DNA of 39,299 nucleotides from an uncultured archaeon (GTDB lineage Archaea; Micrarchaeota; Micrarchaeia; CABMEP01), in the NCBI GenBank assembly GCA_902385155.1, contig CABMEP010000035.1, positions 1-39,299 of the forward strand, given 5' to 3'. The notes beneath the pieces were generated by a model. It did not search any database. It was not told the origin of the DNA and saw nothing but the letters and a program-made list of their open reading frames with translations. This document shows positions 2,659 through 38,642 of this stretch, in pieces. Position numbers and translations under genes: made by a program. The number at the start of each line of letters is the position of its first letter. The stretch's first letter is position 1.

Positions 2659-3078
2659 ATGAAGGGATTCTTCAGCTTCGATGCGGTACTCGCAGTAGTG
2701 GTGCTGATCTCAATGATCTCGTTCACCGCGTTGATGATAAATTCTATAGAGCGTTCAGCGGACGCTCTCGCTGGCCGGGAGAACCAGATGCGACTCCTCG
2801 TTCTGTCCGATATATTCGTAAGGAGAGAGTTTGCGGAAACGACCCGTTCTGCCGTCCATTCGAATGTCATCGATCTAGCATCGATATCCTCCGCTGCCTC
2901 CGCATCGAATTTCTCGGCATTCCGCATGTCAAACGTCAGCATAGAATTGACTGGCGCCGACGGAACAGTTATCGGGTCATCTAGCACCCTCCAGGCCGAC
3001 GCGTATTGCATCCAACGGATAGTGTTCGTGAAAGGACCATATGACGGCCCAGCGGTCCTGAAGGTGTGCGGTTCATGA
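2659..3078 (+). CDS. Pseudopilin-like protein
   Basis: MKGFFSFDAVLAVVVLISMISFTALM: short basic N-terminus, KG then hydrophobic helix; in tandem with other pilin-like genes. Confidence 0.65.
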   Translation: MKGFFSFDAVLAVVVLISMISFTALMINSIERSADALAGRENQMRLLVLSDIFVRREFAETTRSAVHSNVIDLASISSAASASNFSAFRMSNVSIELTGADGTVIGSSSTLQADAYCIQRIVFVKGPYDGPAVLKVCGS

Positions 3079-3455
3079 AGGGCCAGGTGTTCACTCTTGA
3101 GGCGCTGATCGCGCTGCTGTTCCTTGCATCATCATTCACCGTGATCTCCGCGCTCAAACAGGAGACGCGATCCGATTTGTATGATTACGTGTCTGTCGCT
3201 GACACGTTCGAGGTCTTGGAGAAGCAGTACCATGTCCAACTTGCGGATTCCTGCAGAACGGGCGCCTTGTCCCCAGATGTAACGGATCTCTTCAGATTCA
3301 TAGAGGGCCAGACTGGAAAGAGGATGTTCGTCGATTGCGGCCGTCTTGCCGTGCCTAACGACTGCGATCCGTCCCTGGCCATCATCAGGATGACTACGTA
3401 CGACGAGTTCGGGACGATCGTCTGGAGGCGGGTGAGCATCGGCATCTGCAGGTGA
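3075..3455 (+). CDS. Type IV pilin-like protein (class III signal peptide)
   Basis: MKGQVFTLEALIALLFLASSFTVI: KG|QxxxxE motif plus hydrophobic helix; ATGA overlap with preceding gene. Confidence 0.72.
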   Translation: MKGQVFTLEALIALLFLASSFTVISALKQETRSDLYDYVSVADTFEVLEKQYHVQLADSCRTGALSPDVTDLFRFIEGQTGKRMFVDCGRLAVPNDCDPSLAIIRMTTYDEFGTIVWRRVSIGICR

Positions 3456-8879: not shown

Positions 8880-11800
8880 ATGCCTCGTTCTAGGGGAGTC
8901 AGAGGCCGCATATTTTCGGTTCCTGCGGCGTTCATTGTCATCTTTCTTATATCATTTGCACCATCAGCATGGGCGGACTGCAGGCCGAGCTACAGCGATT
9001 CGATCGCATCCGCGCAGGACATTCCTGGCGGATTCCAATCAATCACATGCAGTGTCGTTCTGCCGGCGAAATATGTGATCAGCGGCTGCCTGGGGCTTGT
9101 CGGCGACACCTGCCTTGAAAGCGTGGTCCCAGACGTCACATCCCTGAATGCGACACTCACAGCAGAGGAGGCGGCGAACTTCTCTAAGGCGGTCAATGAC
9201 CTGAACCGTTCCGCGGATTATATCATACGTGCTCAGAATAAGAGGAATGAGATAATCTACGATGGGATCGTAGCGATACATGGCCGCAGTTGCACGGCGA
9301 CAACCTCTTTCATACTGGGCTTTGAGCAAATAATTGGGAACCCACTCGACAGTTTCATCGGAAGAGATGACAGCACAAGCAATCTCTCTTTGTCTTTGTT
9401 CACGCAGCCCCAGGGATTGGATCAGGCGATAATGGATTGCGTCCTCTCGGGGGTGGCTGCAGACGGGACCGCCGGGGAGATCATCGCCAACGAGCGCAGC
9501 GCGCTCGAGGCGGCGAGCATGGGCCTGAACTCCGCGATGGACGTCCTGCAGAATGAGGCAGATGCGCTCTATTGCGAGGGCGGCGGGTACGGGGATCACA
9601 GCCTCGCCGCAGCAGTCATGTACGACAAGGTCAGGAACTTCATAAACATGTCGAACACCCAGACGACAGACGGTTCCGCGGATTTCGGCATGCGATGGGC
9701 GTCACTCTGCGGCAACATACAATTCCTTAAGAGCGGGTACGGCTCCTCTGGCGTGACTGACTGCAGGACCGCCAGGATACTTAACTCTGCTATCAGCGCG
9801 AACAGCATATTCCCCCTGCTTGTCGACATGTACCGCGAGGTCAGGGACGCAAGAATCCAGTTGAAGGCGGATCTGGCGTCTGCCAACCGCTCCGCGTTAG
9901 AGCAGTTCCAGTACGCGATGCAGGCCAGGAAACGGATGCAGGAGAACCAGTACAATCTGATCAACGCAGACGTGGTCAGCTATTTCACCAACGTGTCGAA
10001 TGATCCGTCCGCAGTCATTCCTTCAGAATCATTCCGTTCCATGGATAATAGTCTCAACAGCACGGGGACATCTCCCGGCGCGAACACCCTCCTCGCAGAG
10101 GCGAACAAGACGCTGCTGCTGAAAGAGCAGTTCTATTACGCCATCGCGATCGAGAAGCTGAATAGAGCGGAACGGCTGTCGACAGAGTCGATTGGAGTGG
10201 CCAACCGTACGGAATCATTCGTATCCTCTCTCCTCGAAAACGCAGAGCGGATAACCGCGGCGAAGAGGGCATCCGCGGAATCCGCGATCGCGAGCTTCAC
10301 CGCGAGAGGCGGCGTCGAGTCCATCCAGCAGCAGCTCGCGGTAAGGAGATTCAACGATACAGAGAAGGAATACCTGAAGGATGAAGGCAGGGCGGGCGTC
10401 CGCCTCAGGACCCTGATGAACGCGTCGATGCGCTATGACGAGGCCGCGGACCTGGTGTCCGCGAAAGGCATAATGATCGCTTCGAGCATCGGCAGCCTGG
10501 GCCAATCCATACAGCTCCTGAATTCCGTGATCAGCCTGGCGAAATCGGACGGAGTCAACGTCTACGACGCCGAGCAGCTCGTGAAGGACAAGTCGTTGCT
10601 GGTCCAGTACGCGAATACCACCGCAGTGGAGGCGGATTCCGCGAAGGCGGAGATAGACGCGATGGCCGCCACGCTCTATGTCCGGGCCCCCCAGCAGTAT
10701 TCGGACCTGTCCGCCAAGAGGAGAGTGGCGCTCCAGACGCTCGACGCGCTCGGCGAGGCCCCCGGCGCTCCGGACATGACTCAGATACGGTCCAACGTGA
10801 GCTATCTGGAGGGGTTCGTCTATTCGAACGGGTCATTCATTCCGGATAATATGCTCGGGCACTACAAGGCCGCGCGGGCGACATATGACAACATCATCAC
10901 GGAGCTGTCGAAGCGCGTATCCGAGGTGCTGAAGAGCTACCTGCCAAAGAAGGCGAAAGTCATAAAGACGTACCAGACCGTTCCCGTTGTCGATTCCGCC
11001 GGGGCCGTCACCACGTCGATAGACATCGTGAACGATCTTCCCGTCAATTCGAGCTCTCCTGTCACGGTGAGCATACAGAACGTCCCGGTCAACGTGAACA
11101 GCAACTTCACGTTCGGGCAGGACGGAGTCAGGGCCGCCGCATCAGGCACAGGCGTCGACATCTACCTCTCGGGAGTCAACGAGATGTCCACGTATTCGAT
11201 ACAGGTAGTCACCCCGTACAGGGTGGCGGAGCTCCAGAAGAAGTCGGTGAGCAGGGTGTCCTTGACGCAGTACGAGCTCATCGAGAAGACCGATTATACG
11301 ATAAGGGTGAAGGACGACCTCGATTCACTCACGCTGAACGACGCCACGAGCGCCGACGACTGCACCGCGTACGTCAACGGCAAGGAGCACTCTCTCCTGT
11401 TTGTCGGGGGCAACTTCAGCGCCCGGTTCTCTCCGGTCTATGCGGGCACGGTACAGGCGAGCGTCGTATGCACGACATTCAACCCGATGGAAGTGATAGA
11501 ATCCAATTCGACGGGCACGGACAACAATCTCGACTACCTTTTGAGCGTGAGGAGCACGAAGTCCAGCCTGGAGAACGTCGGCATGACGCTGACATTGAAG
11601 GCGAACCCGAACCTGATCATTCCGACCTCCATCCGGGTATCGGACGGGTCGGACGCGGCGCCGAAGGACTTCTCATATGCGCTCGTTGGCGGCAACTACG
11701 TGGCCAAATGGACGATACCCATCCTCTCGCAGTCGTTCCAGGTGTACAGGGTGTTCTACACCACCACGGACATCGACCAGTACTACAATGAGCTGAAATC

Positions 11801-13121
11801 GCTGGTCAGCTCCGCTTCCGCGGCGGAGAAAGTCGACGTCTCCGCGTACGTCCGCGACGCGGAGTACAGGGTCGGCGTGGGCCACTACGCCGACGCGACC
11901 GAATCGCTGCGCCGCGCCCAGAGGATCATAGACCAGGGCAGGAACGACAGGCTGCAGAGGGAGGCAGTGGCGAACCGCCTGTCCACGGTCTCGGACAAGC
12001 TGTCCGCGGTAAGGAACGCGTCGTCCGGGATACTGTCCCTCGCTTCCTCGTTGAGCATGCCGGACACCATATTCGAGCTGAACAAGCAGCTGGCGGAATT
12101 CGACTCCAAGAAGACGCAGGCGGACCTCTACCTTTCCATGAATGACACAGGCGCCGCGCTGTCCGCGGTCAAGGAGCTGGAGAAGATGTCGGAGTCCACG
12201 AGCCTGGACAAGACATTCTACTCGAAGCAGGAATCGCTGTTCAAGTCATTGAGCAAGCAGAAGTCGACATCGTTCGCGCTGGGCGCGTTCGGCGACACGA
12301 CAGACCTCATCAACACGATCGAGGCAGCGGAGAACACGCTGAAATCTGTGAGCGTGGACATCGCCTCCGGCGCGTATTCCTCCGCGATCGCCACGATGTC
12401 GAACGTCTCCAGCGGGGTGTCCTCCATGGACAAGACGCTGTCGAACAGGACGGGATCCATGGCATCCGAGGCGTCAGCGATCCTTGCGGAAGCGAAGTCG
12501 GCGGTCGGCGGATGGAAACTGCTGAAGGACGGGGTGGCGAACGCGCTGAAGGTCAATTCGGACAATCCAGGGACGAGGGTGGACACCACGTCATTGGCGT
12601 CCTCCGTCAGCGATACGGACAAGAAGGCGACCGAGCTGTCGGCGCTCTACGACAAGCTGAAACAGTACGGCGCCAACGACATACTCCTCAACATCGCCGA
12701 GTTCAGGCAGCTGAAATCGAAATCATCGGACGTCTCCGACGGCGCGGCCTATCTCGAGGGCATAAAGGACGACTATAAGGCGGTCGCTCAGGAATCGCTT
12801 AACGATACTCGCACGTTCATCGAGCAGCGCCTGGCGAACGCGAGCTCCAATGACGAGAAGCAGGTCCTCACGTCGATGCAGCCCCTCCTGATCGCGGCGA
12901 AGGACTCATACGATTCCGGCCTTTACCTCAATTCCATGATCCTCACAGATCACATAAGGAACAGGATAGCGGGCTTTGTTGCGACACCGCAACCGATCGT
13001 CGACCCATTGGTGATATACGTCGTGATAGTCGTCGTGGCATCCGTCGCCGTAGTGGTGCTGTTGTTCAGAAAAGAAGAGCCAAAGAGCCCAAGGCTGATT
13101 GAGAGGTTCAAGCTGGATTGA
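8880..13121 (+). CDS. Giant secreted/surface protein (1413 aa), signal peptide plus C-terminal TM anchor
   Basis: N-terminal hydrophobic signal ending APSAWA; many N-x-S/T sequons; long helical segments; C-terminal VIYVVIVVVASVAVVVLLFRKEEPKSP anchor. Confidence 0.8.
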   Translation: MPRSRGVRGRIFSVPAAFIVIFLISFAPSAWADCRPSYSDSIASAQDIPGGFQSITCSVVLPAKYVISGCLGLVGDTCLESVVPDVTSLNATLTAEEAANFSKAVNDLNRSADYIIRAQNKRNEIIYDGIVAIHGRSCTATTSFILGFEQIIGNPLDSFIGRDDSTSNLSLSLFTQPQGLDQAIMDCVLSGVAADGTAGEIIANERSALEAASMGLNSAMDVLQNEADALYCEGGGYGDHSLAAAVMYDKVRNFINMSNTQTTDGSADFGMRWASLCGNIQFLKSGYGSSGVTDCRTARILNSAISANSIFPLLVDMYREVRDARIQLKADLASANRSALEQFQYAMQARKRMQENQYNLINADVVSYFTNVSNDPSAVIPSESFRSMDNSLNSTGTSPGANTLLAEANKTLLLKEQFYYAIAIEKLNRAERLSTESIGVANRTESFVSSLLENAERITAAKRASAESAIASFTARGGVESIQQQLAVRRFNDTEKEYLKDEGRAGVRLRTLMNASMRYDEAADLVSAKGIMIASSIGSLGQSIQLLNSVISLAKSDGVNVYDAEQLVKDKSLLVQYANTTAVEADSAKAEIDAMAATLYVRAPQQYSDLSAKRRVALQTLDALGEAPGAPDMTQIRSNVSYLEGFVYSNGSFIPDNMLGHYKAARATYDNIITELSKRVSEVLKSYLPKKAKVIKTYQTVPVVDSAGAVTTSIDIVNDLPVNSSSPVTVSIQNVPVNVNSNFTFGQDGVRAAASGTGVDIYLSGVNEMSTYSIQVVTPYRVAELQKKSVSRVSLTQYELIEKTDYTIRVKDDLDSLTLNDATSADDCTAYVNGKEHSLLFVGGNFSARFSPVYAGTVQASVVCTTFNPMEVIESNSTGTDNNLDYLLSVRSTKSSLENVGMTLTLKANPNLIIPTSIRVSDGSDAAPKDFSYALVGGNYVAKWTIPILSQSFQVYRVFYTTTDIDQYYNELKSLVSSASAAEKVDVSAYVRDAEYRVGVGHYADATESLRRAQRIIDQGRNDRLQREAVANRLSTVSDKLSAVRNASSGILSLASSLSMPDTIFELNKQLAEFDSKKTQADLYLSMNDTGAALSAVKELEKMSESTSLDKTFYSKQESLFKSLSKQKSTSFALGAFGDTTDLINTIEAAENTLKSVSVDIASGAYSSAIATMSNVSSGVSSMDKTLSNRTGSMASEASAILAEAKSAVGGWKLLKDGVANALKVNSDNPGTRVDTTSLASSVSDTDKKATELSALYDKLKQYGANDILLNIAEFRQLKSKSSDVSDGAAYLEGIKDDYKAVAQESLNDTRTFIEQRLANASSNDEKQVLTSMQPLLIAAKDSYDSGLYLNSMILTDHIRNRIAGFVATPQPIVDPLVIYVVIVVVASVAVVVLLFRKEEPKSPRLIERFKLD

Positions 13122-14344: not shown

Positions 14345-16363
14345 ATGGCTGATGAGCGGAAGAGAGAGTCTGGTCTGGAGATCCTCGGAGCGGTAGCATT
14401 TCTCCTGCTCTTACTGCTGCTCTGCGCCCTCAAGGTGATCTGCCCCACCGGCGAGTGCTCCAGCGGATTTACGAAGTGCCAGAACTGCCCCGGCGGCTGC
14501 TGCCTGCCAGACGGCACGTGTCCTTGTCCTACAGGCTCATCGCCCTGCAAGGACAAATGCCCTTCGACGACCAATTGCGCGAGCGGCTGCTGCGGTGACG
14601 ATTGCAACTGCGTCATCACCCCAGAGTGCCCCCCGGGCAGCCAATGGAGCAGCCAACGCGGATGCTGCGTGATACTCGAAGGAGTCAGGCGCGGCGAATG
14701 CCTCTCTGTCTGCGCTACGGACACGACAAGGCCCGGCGGCTGCCTCCCGAATATCGACGCATGCGACAAGGACGGCTGCTGCCCGCTGGGCTCGTTCGGT
14801 TGGGACTCCAACTCGTTATGCTGCATCGATCAGCAAGGGGTGTGCATGTCGCTGTGCGCCACCGATCCCACGAGGATCTATTGCCCCTCTCCCTCTGTCG
14901 GCTATTGCGGCGCGGATAACTGCTGCCCGATGAATGCGCATTGGGATTACATCCAGCAATGCTGCGCCGACATGTTCGGAAAATGCGTCTCCGGCGATTC
15001 GTCCGGATGCCCGACTGGATCGGTCTACGATTCGACGCTCGGCTGTTGCGTAATCCCGTCTGAGCCGGGCTCATGCACGACCAGTCCGAACAATTGCCCG
15101 GCCGGAACGCACCCGGACGTCACATCCGCATGCTGCGTGTACGACGGCACGAACATCTGTTTCGGATCCTGCGTCGCTCCGCTTTATTTCGATGCGGTCC
15201 TGAAATGCTGCGTCGACCCGTCGGTCCCGAACGCCTGCGCGTCGGATTCCGGCATCACCTGCCCGGACGGCACCACGTTCAACTCGTTGATCGGCTGCTG
15301 CGTCTACGACGGCACCGACATGTGCTATTACAGCTGCATCCCCCCGGCCTCGTTCGATCCCGTCAAGAAATGCTGCGTGCTGCCGGGGACAGACGTCTGC
15401 GTCGATGGCTGCCCCGCCGGCTCTTTCTATGATGACACGCTGAAATGCTGCGTCTATGCCGGGACATCGATATGCTTGGGCGGCTGCCCGCAAGGCACAG
15501 TCCTCGACTCGGCCCTGGGCTGCTGCGTGTATGCGGGTTCCGCCATATGCGTCGGAAGCTGCCCCGCCGGCACCACATACGATGCGACCCTGAAATGCTG
15601 CATCTATACGGGATCAAAGATATGTTACGGGGGCTGCACTCCGCCGGCGTTTTACAACCCCTCGCTGTTCTGCTGCGTTCTTTCTGGGACGCAGACCGAA
15701 TGCACATCGAACTGTCCGCCCGGAACCGCATACAATGATACAATTGGCTGCTGCGCCTACCCCGGGACGACCATCTGTTTCGGGACCTGTCCGGCCGGCA
15801 CTGAATACGACGGCAACCTGAAGTGCTGCGTCTACGAGGGCTCAGACATCTGCTCAGACAGCTGCCCCGCAGACACCATGTACGATGCGACCCTCAAGTG
15901 CTGCGTCTATGCTGGTTCCAACATCTGTTACGGGGGCTGCCCCTACCCCTCGGTGTACAGCCCGGCGCTGAAATGCTGCGTGCTGCAGGGCGATCCCACC
16001 ACATGCATCAACACCGGATCAGGCGGGGTATGCACATTGCCCAACGTCTATGACGAAACGCTGAAATGCTGCGTCCTTCCGTCGAATCCTGGCGTATGCG
16101 CGGGATCTCCGTCGGGTCTGGTGAGTTGCGATTATAGCGGGACCGCGGGCGCCTGCGCGTCAGGCCTGCTATGCAGCTCGCCCAGCAACTGCGTCGACCA
16201 GGGCAGGAAATGCAACGATCTCCGGCTTCCGATGGGCACATGCAAGGGAACCGGGATATCGTGCAGCGCTTCCTCGCAATGCTGCTGCGGCCTGAATTGC
16301 CAGATGTTCGCAGGAAACGGCGTGTGCTGCCCGGGCGGAATCTGGACCTGCTTTACTGGATGA
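14345..16363 (+). CDS. Membrane-anchored cysteine-rich repeat surface protein
   Basis: Single N-terminal TM (ILGAVAFLLLLLLLCALKVI) then many CC[VI]YxGxxICxGxCPxGxxYDxxLK units. Confidence 0.85.
   Translation: MADERKRESGLEILGAVAFLLLLLLLCALKVICPTGECSSGFTKCQNCPGGCCLPDGTCPCPTGSSPCKDKCPSTTNCASGCCGDDCNCVITPECPPGSQWSSQRGCCVILEGVRRGECLSVCATDTTRPGGCLPNIDACDKDGCCPLGSFGWDSNSLCCIDQQGVCMSLCATDPTRIYCPSPSVGYCGADNCCPMNAHWDYIQQCCADMFGKCVSGDSSGCPTGSVYDSTLGCCVIPSEPGSCTTSPNNCPAGTHPDVTSACCVYDGTNICFGSCVAPLYFDAVLKCCVDPSVPNACASDSGITCPDGTTFNSLIGCCVYDGTDMCYYSCIPPASFDPVKKCCVLPGTDVCVDGCPAGSFYDDTLKCCVYAGTSICLGGCPQGTVLDSALGCCVYAGSAICVGSCPAGTTYDATLKCCIYTGSKICYGGCTPPAFYNPSLFCCVLSGTQTECTSNCPPGTAYNDTIGCCAYPGTTICFGTCPAGTEYDGNLKCCVYEGSDICSDSCPADTMYDATLKCCVYAGSNICYGGCPYPSVYSPALKCCVLQGDPTTCINTGSGGVCTLPNVYDETLKCCVLPSNPGVCAGSPSGLVSCDYSGTAGACASGLLCSSPSNCVDQGRKCNDLRLPMGTCKGTGISCSASSQCCCGLNCQMFAGNGVCCPGGIWTCFTG
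15049..16110 (+). repeat. Tandem ~25-aa (75-bp) CC-repeat array inside the Cys-rich ORF
   Basis: About 14 successive units such as CCVYAGSAICVGSCPAGTTYDATLK / CCVYEGSDICSDSCPADTMYDATLK. Confidence 0.85.
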
Positions 16364-35263: not shown

Positions 35264-36046
35264 TCAGAGCGCGGCGAACAGTCTCTTTATCTCGTCCAGG
35301 GTGAGAGTGAACACCCTCCTCTCGCCCAATCCCAGCCGTTCGGCCGCGCTGTCCGCCTTCGGATAATTGGTCTCAAGCTCCCCGGCCCTCAGCGCGGAAT
35401 GGACTGTGTTCTTCCTGTGCGAGAAGAGCCGTTCTATGAACTTGTCCCTATCCGCATCGCGCTTCTCGTCGGTCTTGGTGAGCATCACCATCGCCGAATC
35501 CACCTGCGGCATCGGCCTGAACGAGCCGCGCTTCACGGATCGGAGGTAGATCGGCCTGAAATAGAGCTGGGTCATCACGCTGAGGCGCGACCAGTCCCTC
35601 TCGCCGGGCTTCGCCACCATCCTCTGCACGAATTCCTTCTGCAGGCAGAGGAGCGCCTGCTCGAAACTGAACTCGGGGAGCTTGAACAGCAGCGGGGATG
35701 AGATCACGTACGGCACGTTGCTGATTATCAGGTCTATTCTCTTGGCTTTGGCCCGCTTCATTATGTCCGCTTCCGATAAGCCAAGGAAATCGGCGTGTAT
35801 CACGCGGACGTCCTTGTCCTCGTCGAATTCGAACAGCTCGGTCAGGGCCTCCACCATGACCTCGTCCTTCTCCACGATGATGAGCTTCTTGGCCGTCTCC
35901 GCGATCCGCTTGCTGAGGTTGCCTGTCCCCCCGCCTATCTCCAGCACTGTCTTGCCTTCAGGCCCGAGCATCGCCGTCTCGTAGTCCAGCGCCTTCTCGT
36001 CCATGAGCATATGCTGCCCGAAACGCCTTGTCCGTTGGTGGGTCAT
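35264..36046 (-). CDS. ksgA: 16S rRNA dimethyltransferase KsgA/RsmA
   Basis: FGQHMLMDEKALD, VLEIGGGTGNLSKRIAE, LIISNVPYVISSPLL. Confidence 0.95.
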   Translation of the reverse strand: MTHQRTRRFGQHMLMDEKALDYETAMLGPEGKTVLEIGGGTGNLSKRIAETAKKLIIVEKDEVMVEALTELFEFDEDKDVRVIHADFLGLSEADIMKRAKAKRIDLIISNVPYVISSPLLFKLPEFSFEQALLCLQKEFVQRMVAKPGERDWSRLSVMTQLYFRPIYLRSVKRGSFRPMPQVDSAMVMLTKTDEKRDADRDKFIERLFSHRKNTVHSALRAGELETNYPKADSAAERLGLGERRVFTLTLDEIKRLFAAL

Positions 36047-36779: not shown

Positions 36780-37397
36780 TTATCTCCTGAATCCGCCTGG
36801 CCGTCCGCTGTAGCCGCCGTACCCGTGCTGCTCATGCGGCGGGGTCGGGGGCCTGGTGAACAGGAAATACCTCTCCTCGCCGTTGAGCTCGGCCACCACC
36901 CGTTCGGTGATGATGTCCGCGGGGTTCAGCATGTGCGGTATGCGCTTCAGCATTTCGTCGAAGGACTCGAACGGCTTCTTGTCGCGCTCGTCGAGTATCT
37001 CCGCGAGGTGCTTCTTGCCCACCCCTGGCAATAATTCGAGCTGGTGCTGCCTGATGGTGATCGGGCCGCACTTGTTGATGAACGTGACGAACTCGGGCTC
37101 CCTCATCCTGACTATCTTCTTGATGACCGCCTTCAGCTCGCTCCTCGCCGAGCTGGATATCTGAGGCATCTCGATCCTGCCGCGGATCCTGTCCACCTCC
37201 TTCCTCAGGCTGAGCTCCTTGCCTATGTAGAGCCTGTCGCCGATGGATATCTCCAGGTCCTTCTTGGTGACCGCCTCGAGCAGGGTGAAGAAATTCTCCC
37301 CCACCATGAACACCGTAGGCTCGCGGCGTATGTCATCGGACTTGCCCGATGGTAAATAGTCTAGCACGAAACCGTATTCTTCCATCATGGAGGTCAC
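36780..37397 (-). CDS. DUF655 protein (OB/HhH)
   Basis: EYGFVLDYLPSGKSDD...GITIRQHQLELLPGVGKKHLAEIL-like; next to rpoF/L21e. Confidence 0.88.
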   Translation of the reverse strand: MTSMMEEYGFVLDYLPSGKSDDIRREPTVFMVGENFFTLLEAVTKKDLEISIGDRLYIGKELSLRKEVDRIRGRIEMPQISSSARSELKAVIKKIVRMREPEFVTFINKCGPITIRQHQLELLPGVGKKHLAEILDERDKKPFESFDEMLKRIPHMLNPADIITERVVAELNGEERYFLFTRPPTPPHEQHGYGGYSGRPGGFRR

Positions 37398-37398
37398 C

Positions 37399-37740
37399 TC
37401 AGGCTTTGGCGTACTTACCTACGATCTCCAGCACCTTGGACACCTCGTCCTCGGTTAGGGCGAACGTCTCCTTGGCGAAGAGGGGCGCCACTTCATCCGG
37501 AGTCTTCGGCATGAGGTCAGCGAGCTTGACCGCCTTGGCGCGGTTGATCTTGGCGACCGCCGCCATCAGCTCGTCTATGAGCTCGTATGCCTTCTTCTTG
37601 TCCAGCTTCGCGACCTTCTTGGAATAGTCCAGTGTCTTGGTCTGCTCGAAGCCGGCCTCCATGTCGCTGGGCATCTCGAGTATCTCCTTCACGTCCGCGA
37701 GGGGGACCTCCTTTACATCAATAGTCCTTCGTCCTATCAT
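37399..37740 (-). CDS. rpoF: RNA polymerase subunit F (Rpb4)
   Basis: MIGRRTIDVKEVPLADVKEILEM..FEQTKTLDYSKKVAKL..LMPKTPDEVAPLFAKE; located between L21e and DUF655. Confidence 0.88.
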   Translation of the reverse strand: MIGRRTIDVKEVPLADVKEILEMPSDMEAGFEQTKTLDYSKKVAKLDKKKAYELIDELMAAVAKINRAKAVKLADLMPKTPDEVAPLFAKETFALTEDEVSKVLEIVGKYAKA

Positions 37741-37758
37741 ATGAATCACGCCCAATGA

Positions 37759-38043
37759 TCAGCAGCTCTTGAGGTGTATGGCTGTGGTGATGAACCTCTT
37801 TGTGAGGCTGCCGTCCTTCAGCTCGACGACATACGCGCTCCCCTGCTTGCCCACCACGGTGCCGACACGGCCGGCGTACCTCGGGGACGGGAAATCCTCG
37901 TACTTGGCGTTCGGCACGAGCTGCACCTTCGTTCCTACTTCCAGCTTGTGCATCCGCTCCGACACAGTGACGTCTCGCCTGCGCGCGTTCCTCCCGAGGA
38001 GGCGCGACCTGCGGTTCATTCTTCCCTTCGATGATCTCGCCAT
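37759..38043 (-). CDS. rpl21e: Ribosomal protein L21e
   Basis: MARSSKGRMNRRSRLLGRNARRRDVTVSERMHKLEVGTKVQLVPNAKYEDFPSPRYAGRVGTVVGKQG. Confidence 0.9.
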   Translation of the reverse strand: MARSSKGRMNRRSRLLGRNARRRDVTVSERMHKLEVGTKVQLVPNAKYEDFPSPRYAGRVGTVVGKQGSAYVVELKDGSLTKRFITTAIHLKSC

Positions 38044-38130
38044 ACATACCACTGATGATTATCCAACGTTCTCTATCTTCAAAAGAACTGTCATTATAGT
38101 ACATCTCGCATTTAAAAAACCAACGTTCGG

Positions 38131-38153
38131 GTATTTAAATGGCCTTTAAATAC
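38131..38153. promoter_or_regulatory. 9-bp perfect inverted repeat of TATA-like elements upstream of half-TBP
   Basis: GTATTTAAA-TGGCC-TTTAAATAC. Confidence 0.75.
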
Positions 38154-38158
38154 TTTTC

Positions 38159-38168
38159 TTTATAAATA
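38159..38168 (+). promoter_or_regulatory. TATA box of half-TBP gene
   Basis: TTTATAAATA, ~51 nt upstream of ATG, predicting a start site near 38185-38192. Confidence 0.6.
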
Positions 38169-38206: not shown

Positions 38207-38218
38207 GAAGGTGTATGC

Positions 38219-38497
38219 ATGGTAAGAGATGTTCCTTTCAGGATAGAGAATATCGTCGCTTCCGCGAATCTGGGCATAGAGCTTGATCTCTACACGCTCG
38301 GAAGGAAGGTGCCAGACATCGAATACGAGCCGGAGCAGTTCCCGGGCGCGATCCTGAAGCTGAAGGACCCGAAGGCGTCCCTCCTGCTCTTCAAGAACGG
38401 CAAGATCATCTGCACCGGGTGCAGGACCGAGCACGAAGTGAAGCTCGCCATCAGGAAGGCGCTCACCATCCTCCTCAAGGCGCAGAAGAAGAGATAG
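38219..38497 (+). CDS. Single-repeat TATA-binding protein homologue (half-TBP)
   Basis: RIENIVASANLGIELDLYTLGRKVPDIEYEPEQFPGAILKLKDPKASLLLFKNGKIICTGCRTEHEVKLAIRKALTILLKAQKKR then TAG; one TBP repeat only; no second repeat in the downstream sequence. Confidence 0.9.
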   Translation: MVRDVPFRIENIVASANLGIELDLYTLGRKVPDIEYEPEQFPGAILKLKDPKASLLLFKNGKIICTGCRTEHEVKLAIRKALTILLKAQKKR

Positions 38498-38642
38498 CAC
38501 CCTTCTTTTTTCTTTTATTCCGCACGGCCTAGCCTCCGGCCCGTCGTTCCCGGCCGCGTCCGTCCCCGATCCGCCGCACGTCAGGGCCGCTTCCAGCAAA
38601 GGATTTAAACCATGGATGGGTCAGCTAATCGTGGAGAGGAAG

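What the first reader, a model, noticed from the sequence alone, without database searches (positions are those of the whole stretch)
38219..38497. Stand-alone half TATA-binding protein
Canonical archaeal/eukaryotic TBP is ~180 aa with two imperfect repeats forming a pseudo-symmetric saddle. This ORF is one repeat and then a clean TAG, TATA box upstream and T-rich tract downstream. It keeps the DNA-facing ENIVAS segment and both positions equivalent to intercalating Phe residues (QFPGAILKL and LLLFKNGK). By eye it mixes features of both repeats of ordinary archaeal TBP: RIENIVAS is repeat-1-like and EYEPEQFPG is repeat-2-like. Inference: it may homodimerise into a truly symmetric TBP saddle, heterodimerise with another half, or act as a TBP antagonist. 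Alternatives are an ancestral-like state or reduction from a full TBP. Whether the genome also encodes a full TBP cannot be seen here.
Basis: partly seen in the sequence, partly recalled or inferred. Interest (0 to 1): 0.92.

Follow-up and report, generated by a model that had tools for sequence, protein, structure and literature searches.

The report
Half-length TATA-binding protein, used alone
This micrarchaeon appears to run its promoters with a TATA-binding protein of half the usual length, which most likely works as a pair of identical copies, and the half-size form recurs across most of its archaeal class.

Summary
Window 38219-38497(+) encodes a complete 92-aa protein that is exactly one TBP lobe (Pfam TBP, E 2.6e-28). 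It is not a frameshift or fragment: a sister genome has an 88%-identical half of the same length under strong purifying selection. It is the only TBP found in its 965-kb (83% complete) assembly, and one half is likewise the only TBP in a single-contig 771-kb relative. Class-wide (Micrarchaeia, 301 genomes), about 199 of the 276 genomes with a TBP belong to families with stand-alone halves. Some carry one, some two separate genes; other families carry a fused two-lobe TBP whose lobes are unusually alike. Halves and fused forms share one locus (divergent from rpl21e-rpoF), so the half is the tbp orthologue, not an antagonist. TFB and BRE/TATA promoters are present. Best explanation: an obligate dimer (homodimer here) forming a symmetric saddle. 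Dimerisation and DNA binding were not tested. Single-lobe archaeal TBPs were already noted in the literature; that they are the sole TBP of most of a class, sometimes paired and possibly re-fused, I did not find reported in the searched library.

The parts
38219..38497 (+). Stand-alone single-lobe TBP, 92 aa, ATG to TAG (strand/helix order S1-H1-S2-S3-S4-S5-H2)
38246..38269 (+). Codons for residues 10-17 (strand S1, ENIVASAN); DNA-facing N11 and V13 invariant in 49 halves; predicted seam strand of a dimer
   Evidence: compare S1 length in fused TBP
38321..38347 (+). Codons for residues 35-43 (EYEPEQFPG, stirrup): C-lobe-type TFB-contact glutamates E37 and E39, first intercalating Phe F41
   Evidence: C-lobe TFB signature from PMC7221094
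38384..38404 (+). Codons for residues 56-62 (LLFKNGK) with second intercalating Phe F58
38145..38152 (+). TATA-like box TTTAAATA
   Evidence: position and consensus only
38159..38166 (+). TATA-like box TTTATAAA (palindromic); function inferred
   Evidence: genome-wide motif
38208..38213 (+). AAGGTG, Shine-Dalgarno-like, 5 bases before the ATG
38506..38516 (+). T-runs downstream of the stop (possible archaeal terminator)
37759..38052 (-). Ribosomal protein L21e, divergent neighbour; syntenic marker of the tbp locus
37399..37755 (-). RNA polymerase subunit Rpb4/RpoF, syntenic
36780..37397 (-). DUF655 protein, syntenic
35264..36046 (-). KsgA/Dim1 rRNA adenine dimethylase, syntenic

Best explanation
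The ORF is the cell's genuine and only TBP, in single-lobe form. Shown: it is one complete, conserved TBP lobe at the orthologous tbp locus, with a TFB gene and BRE/TATA promoters in the same genome and no other TBP found. Inferred: two copies pair through strand S1 (S1-S1') into a ten-strand saddle like canonical TBP but truly symmetric. Four Phe residues (F41 and F58 of each copy) kink a TATA box. [quoted passage not shown]
For: One lobe over its full length; AlphaFold model pLDDT 90.6, matching TBP lobes in the PDB at 0.8 A over ~79 residues. Sole TBP in own genome, in the same-family genome and in the single-contig G148, even at E<=10. Each of 15 half-TBP families verified by extracted sequence; class tally. 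Same locus as full TBPs: L21e divergent upstream in 41 of 48 halves and 23 of 29 fulls. DNA-face, Phe and TFB-contact residues invariant (TFB signature from PMC7221094). Canonical TFB with Zn-ribbon and two cyclin folds in half-TBP genomes. BRE+TATA motif upstream of genes in half-only genomes, near -29 in own genome. Purifying selection: dN 0.10 with pS 0.82. A fused Micrarchaeia TBP is predicted as the canonical saddle, and its S1 strand is 11 residues against 6 in the lone half, as expected if S1 is completed by a partner lobe. Relatives with two different half genes (A_DKE complete chromosome, G033, G056) fit a need for pairing.
Against: No dimer was modelled or measured, and AlphaFold-Multimer was not available. 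The assembly is 83% complete, so a second half or a full TBP could be missing; the sister genome (92%) and the single-contig G148 argue against this. A symmetric dimer might predict palindromic TATA boxes; that test was not consistent (own genome near-symmetric, sister G001 asymmetric), and it is not diagnostic in any case.
Confidence: 0.8

Rival explanations
1. The species has a second, divergent half (as in Micrarchaeum A_DKE and family f3) that falls in an assembly gap; the working TBP is a heterodimer.
For: Two half genes per genome are common in family f3 and occur in complete genomes; own assembly is 83% complete.
Against: Same-family G001 (92% complete) and single-contig G148 have exactly one. 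The divergent B copies form one supported group in f3-type sequences only.
Confidence: 0.1
2. A full two-lobe TBP exists in the missing 17% and the half is a regulator or antagonist.
For: Incomplete assembly only.
Against: The half is at the tbp locus shared with full TBPs; no full TBP in the relatives checked that carry halves, except G270, where it looks foreign; TFB-contact and DNA-contact residues are retained.
Confidence: 0.03
3. A lone lobe works as a monomer on half a TATA box, with TFB or another factor supplying the rest.
For: TBP-like domains work singly in RNase HIII (PMC7221094; PMC12917281).
Against: The TATA box keeps its usual length and BRE spacing; in the lone-lobe model S1 is short compared with the fused form; lineages with two half genes or fused lobes suggest two lobes are needed.
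Confidence: 0.06
4. Truncation by sequencing error, misassembly or pseudogenisation.
For: Draft assembly in 67 contigs.
Against: Same-length orthologue in G001 with 44 synonymous against 11 nonsynonymous codon differences; many other halves in the class; no remnant downstream.
Confidence: 0.01

Closest known systems
Canonical archaeal TBP (e.g. M. jannaschii 2z8u, P. woesei 1pcz/1ais)
   Same: Fold, DNA-facing residues, Phe pairs, TFB-contact stirrup; partner TFB and BRE/TATA promoters.
   Different: One lobe instead of two in a chain; FPGAI and FKNGK in place of FPGL/V and F-SGK; the C-lobe TFB signature is carried by the only lobe.
Monopartite TBP-domain proteins of some Archaea (Brindefalk et al. 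2013, NAR, abstract recalled from memory, text not held; [quoted passage not shown]
   Same: Single-lobe archaeal TBP proteins; very likely the same kind of protein.
   Different: Sole-TBP status, class-wide distribution, two-gene lineages, shared locus with fused TBPs and TATA usage were not found stated in the passages I could read.
RNase HIII N-domain and DNA glycosylase TBP-like domains
   Same: A single TBP-like domain that binds nucleic acid.
   Different: Part of an enzyme; no TFB partner and no promoter role; sequence far apart (from general knowledge and PMC7221094).

Membership tests
TBP (PF00352 domain family) | TBP lobe by sequence profile | tested here: met
   98.1 bits against cut-off 22.9
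TBP (PF00352 domain family) | TBP lobe fold | tested here: met
   pLDDT 90.6; TBP lobes in PDB at 0.8 A
Canonical archaeal/eukaryotic TBP | Two lobes in one polypeptide | tested here: not met
   92 aa, one lobe; no second-lobe remnant
Canonical archaeal/eukaryotic TBP | Intercalating Phe pair per lobe | tested here: met
   F41 and F58 by alignment, invariant in 49 halves
Canonical archaeal/eukaryotic TBP | C-lobe TFB-contact glutamates | tested here: met
   YEPEQ invariant; signature from PMC7221094; the contact itself was not tested
Canonical archaeal/eukaryotic TBP | TFB partner and BRE/TATA promoters in the genome | tested here: met
Monopartite archaeal TBP | Stand-alone single TBP lobe in an archaeon | tested here: met
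Monopartite archaeal TBP | Dimerisation and TATA binding | not testable with these tools
   needs protein or a multimer prediction

The most novel reading that the evidence does not exclude
The base of Micrarchaeota ran on a single-lobe, homodimeric TBP (the form usually placed only before the TBP duplication). Within the class it was duplicated into heteromeric pairs in one lineage and re-fused into two-lobe TBPs in one or two others, so living cells show every step of the origin of TBP.
Probability: 0.45. Interest if true: 0.88.

Novelty: new variant of a known kind. Interest (0 to 1): 0.78.

Why it matters
[quoted passage not shown] Lineages whose only TBP is a half, others with two halves and others with a fused pair let the duplication be studied directly. 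They also test how a symmetric TBP gives directional transcription (TFB/BRE alone), and give a minimal TBP for structural work. Ca. Micrarchaeum A_DKE has two half-TBPs and a complete genome; a stable Micrarchaeum co-culture is described in PMC8975820, so the idea can be tested.

Tried and rejected
Palindromic TATA boxes as a signature of a symmetric TBP: the own-genome core TTTATAAA is near-symmetric (p 0.24 for all sites, 0.015 for leaderless ones), but sister G001 and G148 are asymmetric; a Sulfolobus TATA box quoted in PMC8131849 (TTTTAAAA) is palindromic with a canonical TBP, so this is not diagnostic. Re-duplication as a statistical result: AU tests against keeping first lobes apart from second lobes did not reject (p 0.125 and 0.107). 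Antagonist, pseudogene and assembly error were rejected. L100, first counted as a half, is a full TBP cut by its contig end. Brindefalk 2013 is not held.

Full report
OBSERVATION. Window 38219-38497(+) encodes a complete 92-aa protein ending in TAG. It matches the Pfam TBP lobe once, end to end (98.1 bits, cut-off 22.9), and aligns to both repeats of solved archaeal TBPs with similar scores. No second lobe can be read downstream in the three + frames. TATA-like boxes lie at 38145 and 38159, an AAGGTG motif five bases before the ATG, and T-runs follow the stop.

NOT AN ARTEFACT. The same-family genome G001 has an 88%-identical half with the same C-terminus; 44 codon differences are synonymous and 11 are not, dN 0.10 with synonymous differences at 0.82 per site.

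SOLE TBP. In the own assembly (965 kb, 67 contigs, 82.7% complete) no other TBP is found by Pfam or by a half-TBP profile at E<=10. The same holds for G001 (92% complete) and G148 (single contig of 771,545 bases). A missing second gene here cannot be fully excluded.

DISTRIBUTION. Contig titles of relatives place the window in Micrarchaeota. In the class, 276 of 301 genomes have a TBP match. By family, about 199 belong to 15 families whose extracted TBPs are halves (each verified) and about 77 to 11 families with two-lobe TBPs (7 of these verified by sequence; 4 read from paired matches only). Counts were made by hand from family membership. Family f3 typically has two half genes on separate loci, including single-contig genomes G033 and G056. 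Ca. Micrarchaeum A_DKE (complete chromosome) has two halves and no full TBP. Iainarchaeota mostly have two-lobe TBPs; one half was found.

ORTHOLOGY. Half and full tbp genes sit in the same place, divergent from rpl21e-rpoF(Rpb4)-DUF655-ksgA: L21e lies divergent upstream in 41 of 48 halves and 23 of 29 fulls tested (Pfam names). This identifies the half as tbp itself.

ANATOMY. In 49 halves N11 and V13 (strand S1), Y36-G43 (YEPEQFPG) and F58-K62 (FKNGK) are invariant. The YEPEQ loop carries the two glutamates that PMC7221094 describes as the C-lobe signature for contact with TFB. The AlphaFold model (pLDDT 90.6) superposes on TBP lobes at 0.8 A. A natural fused TBP of the class (L098) is predicted as a full saddle (pLDDT 93.3); there strand S1 spans 11 residues (11-21) against 6 (12-17) in the lone half. 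I read this as S1 needing a partner lobe; this is inference.

PARTNERS AND PROMOTERS. TFB in the own genome and in other half-TBP genomes has the Zn-ribbon, B-reader and two cyclin folds. A BRE (GGAAA-type) plus TATA motif precedes genes in the own genome, centred near -26 from the start codon, and a similar motif is found in G001, G148, G301 and G013. Gene starts were called by a simple script, so positions are approximate. Palindromic symmetry of the TATA box was not consistent and is not used as evidence.

EVOLUTION. In a tree of 110 lobes, all Micrarchaeota and Iainarchaeota lobes fall on one side of canonical archaeal lobes of both kinds (SH-aLRT 87). Lobes within one Micrarchaeia full TBP are 49-78% identical, mostly 55% or more, against 42-55% in the canonical ones sampled. 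Keeping all first lobes apart from all second lobes is not rejected (p 0.125). On a tree of the neighbouring genes, halves occupy the sister trio L103/L105/L121 and most basal branches, and full TBPs occupy two nested clades (the basal order is unresolved, and the lone 'half' L100 inside a full clade is a contig-end truncation). This favours a half-state near the base and re-fusion, but reduction plus homogenisation of repeats is not excluded.

MECHANISM. Most likely an obligate homodimer forms a symmetric saddle, kinks TATA DNA with four Phe residues and presents two equal TFB-binding stirrups; the BRE decides which one TFB uses. Dimerisation, bending and TFB recruitment are inferred, not shown.

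PRIOR KNOWLEDGE. Single-lobe archaeal TBPs were noted in PMC7221094 and, from memory, in Brindefalk et al. 2013. A DPANN survey lists TBP as conserved without remark on its size in the passage found (PMC8407392). Ten library searches found no report of class-wide, sole half-TBPs; the library is incomplete.

Noticed in passing
L072 (G270:C43), 2711-3266: A family-f3 genome with two half-TBPs also carries a canonical-type two-lobe TBP on a short contig; contamination or transfer.
   Followed up: partly
L034, L035, L036 (G027, G017): Family f6 genomes carry up to three half-TBP genes, two of them about 1.3 kb apart in tandem in G027.
   Followed up: no
L180 (G302:C1:420110-420310) and G003:C9:21028-21222: Weak third TBP-like stretches (19-24 bits, ~95-99 aa frames) in genomes that also have a full TBP; possibly a distant TBP-lobe protein.
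   Followed up: no
L166 (DAOWAC010000024.1): Record labelled Chloroflexota carries an archaeal Iainarchaeota-type TBP locus; probably a mis-binned contig.
   Followed up: no
window 14345-16363: 672-aa cysteine-rich protein with many repeats of the type CCVYxGTxICxGxCPAGTxYDxTLK; likely secreted.
   Followed up: no
window 8880-13121: 1413-aa predicted surface protein with an N-terminal signal-like segment and a C-terminal transmembrane segment followed by a basic tail.
   Followed up: no
G009 (TFIIB search): Five TFIIB-fold matches in a genome with a single half-TBP: TFB paralogues.
   Followed up: no
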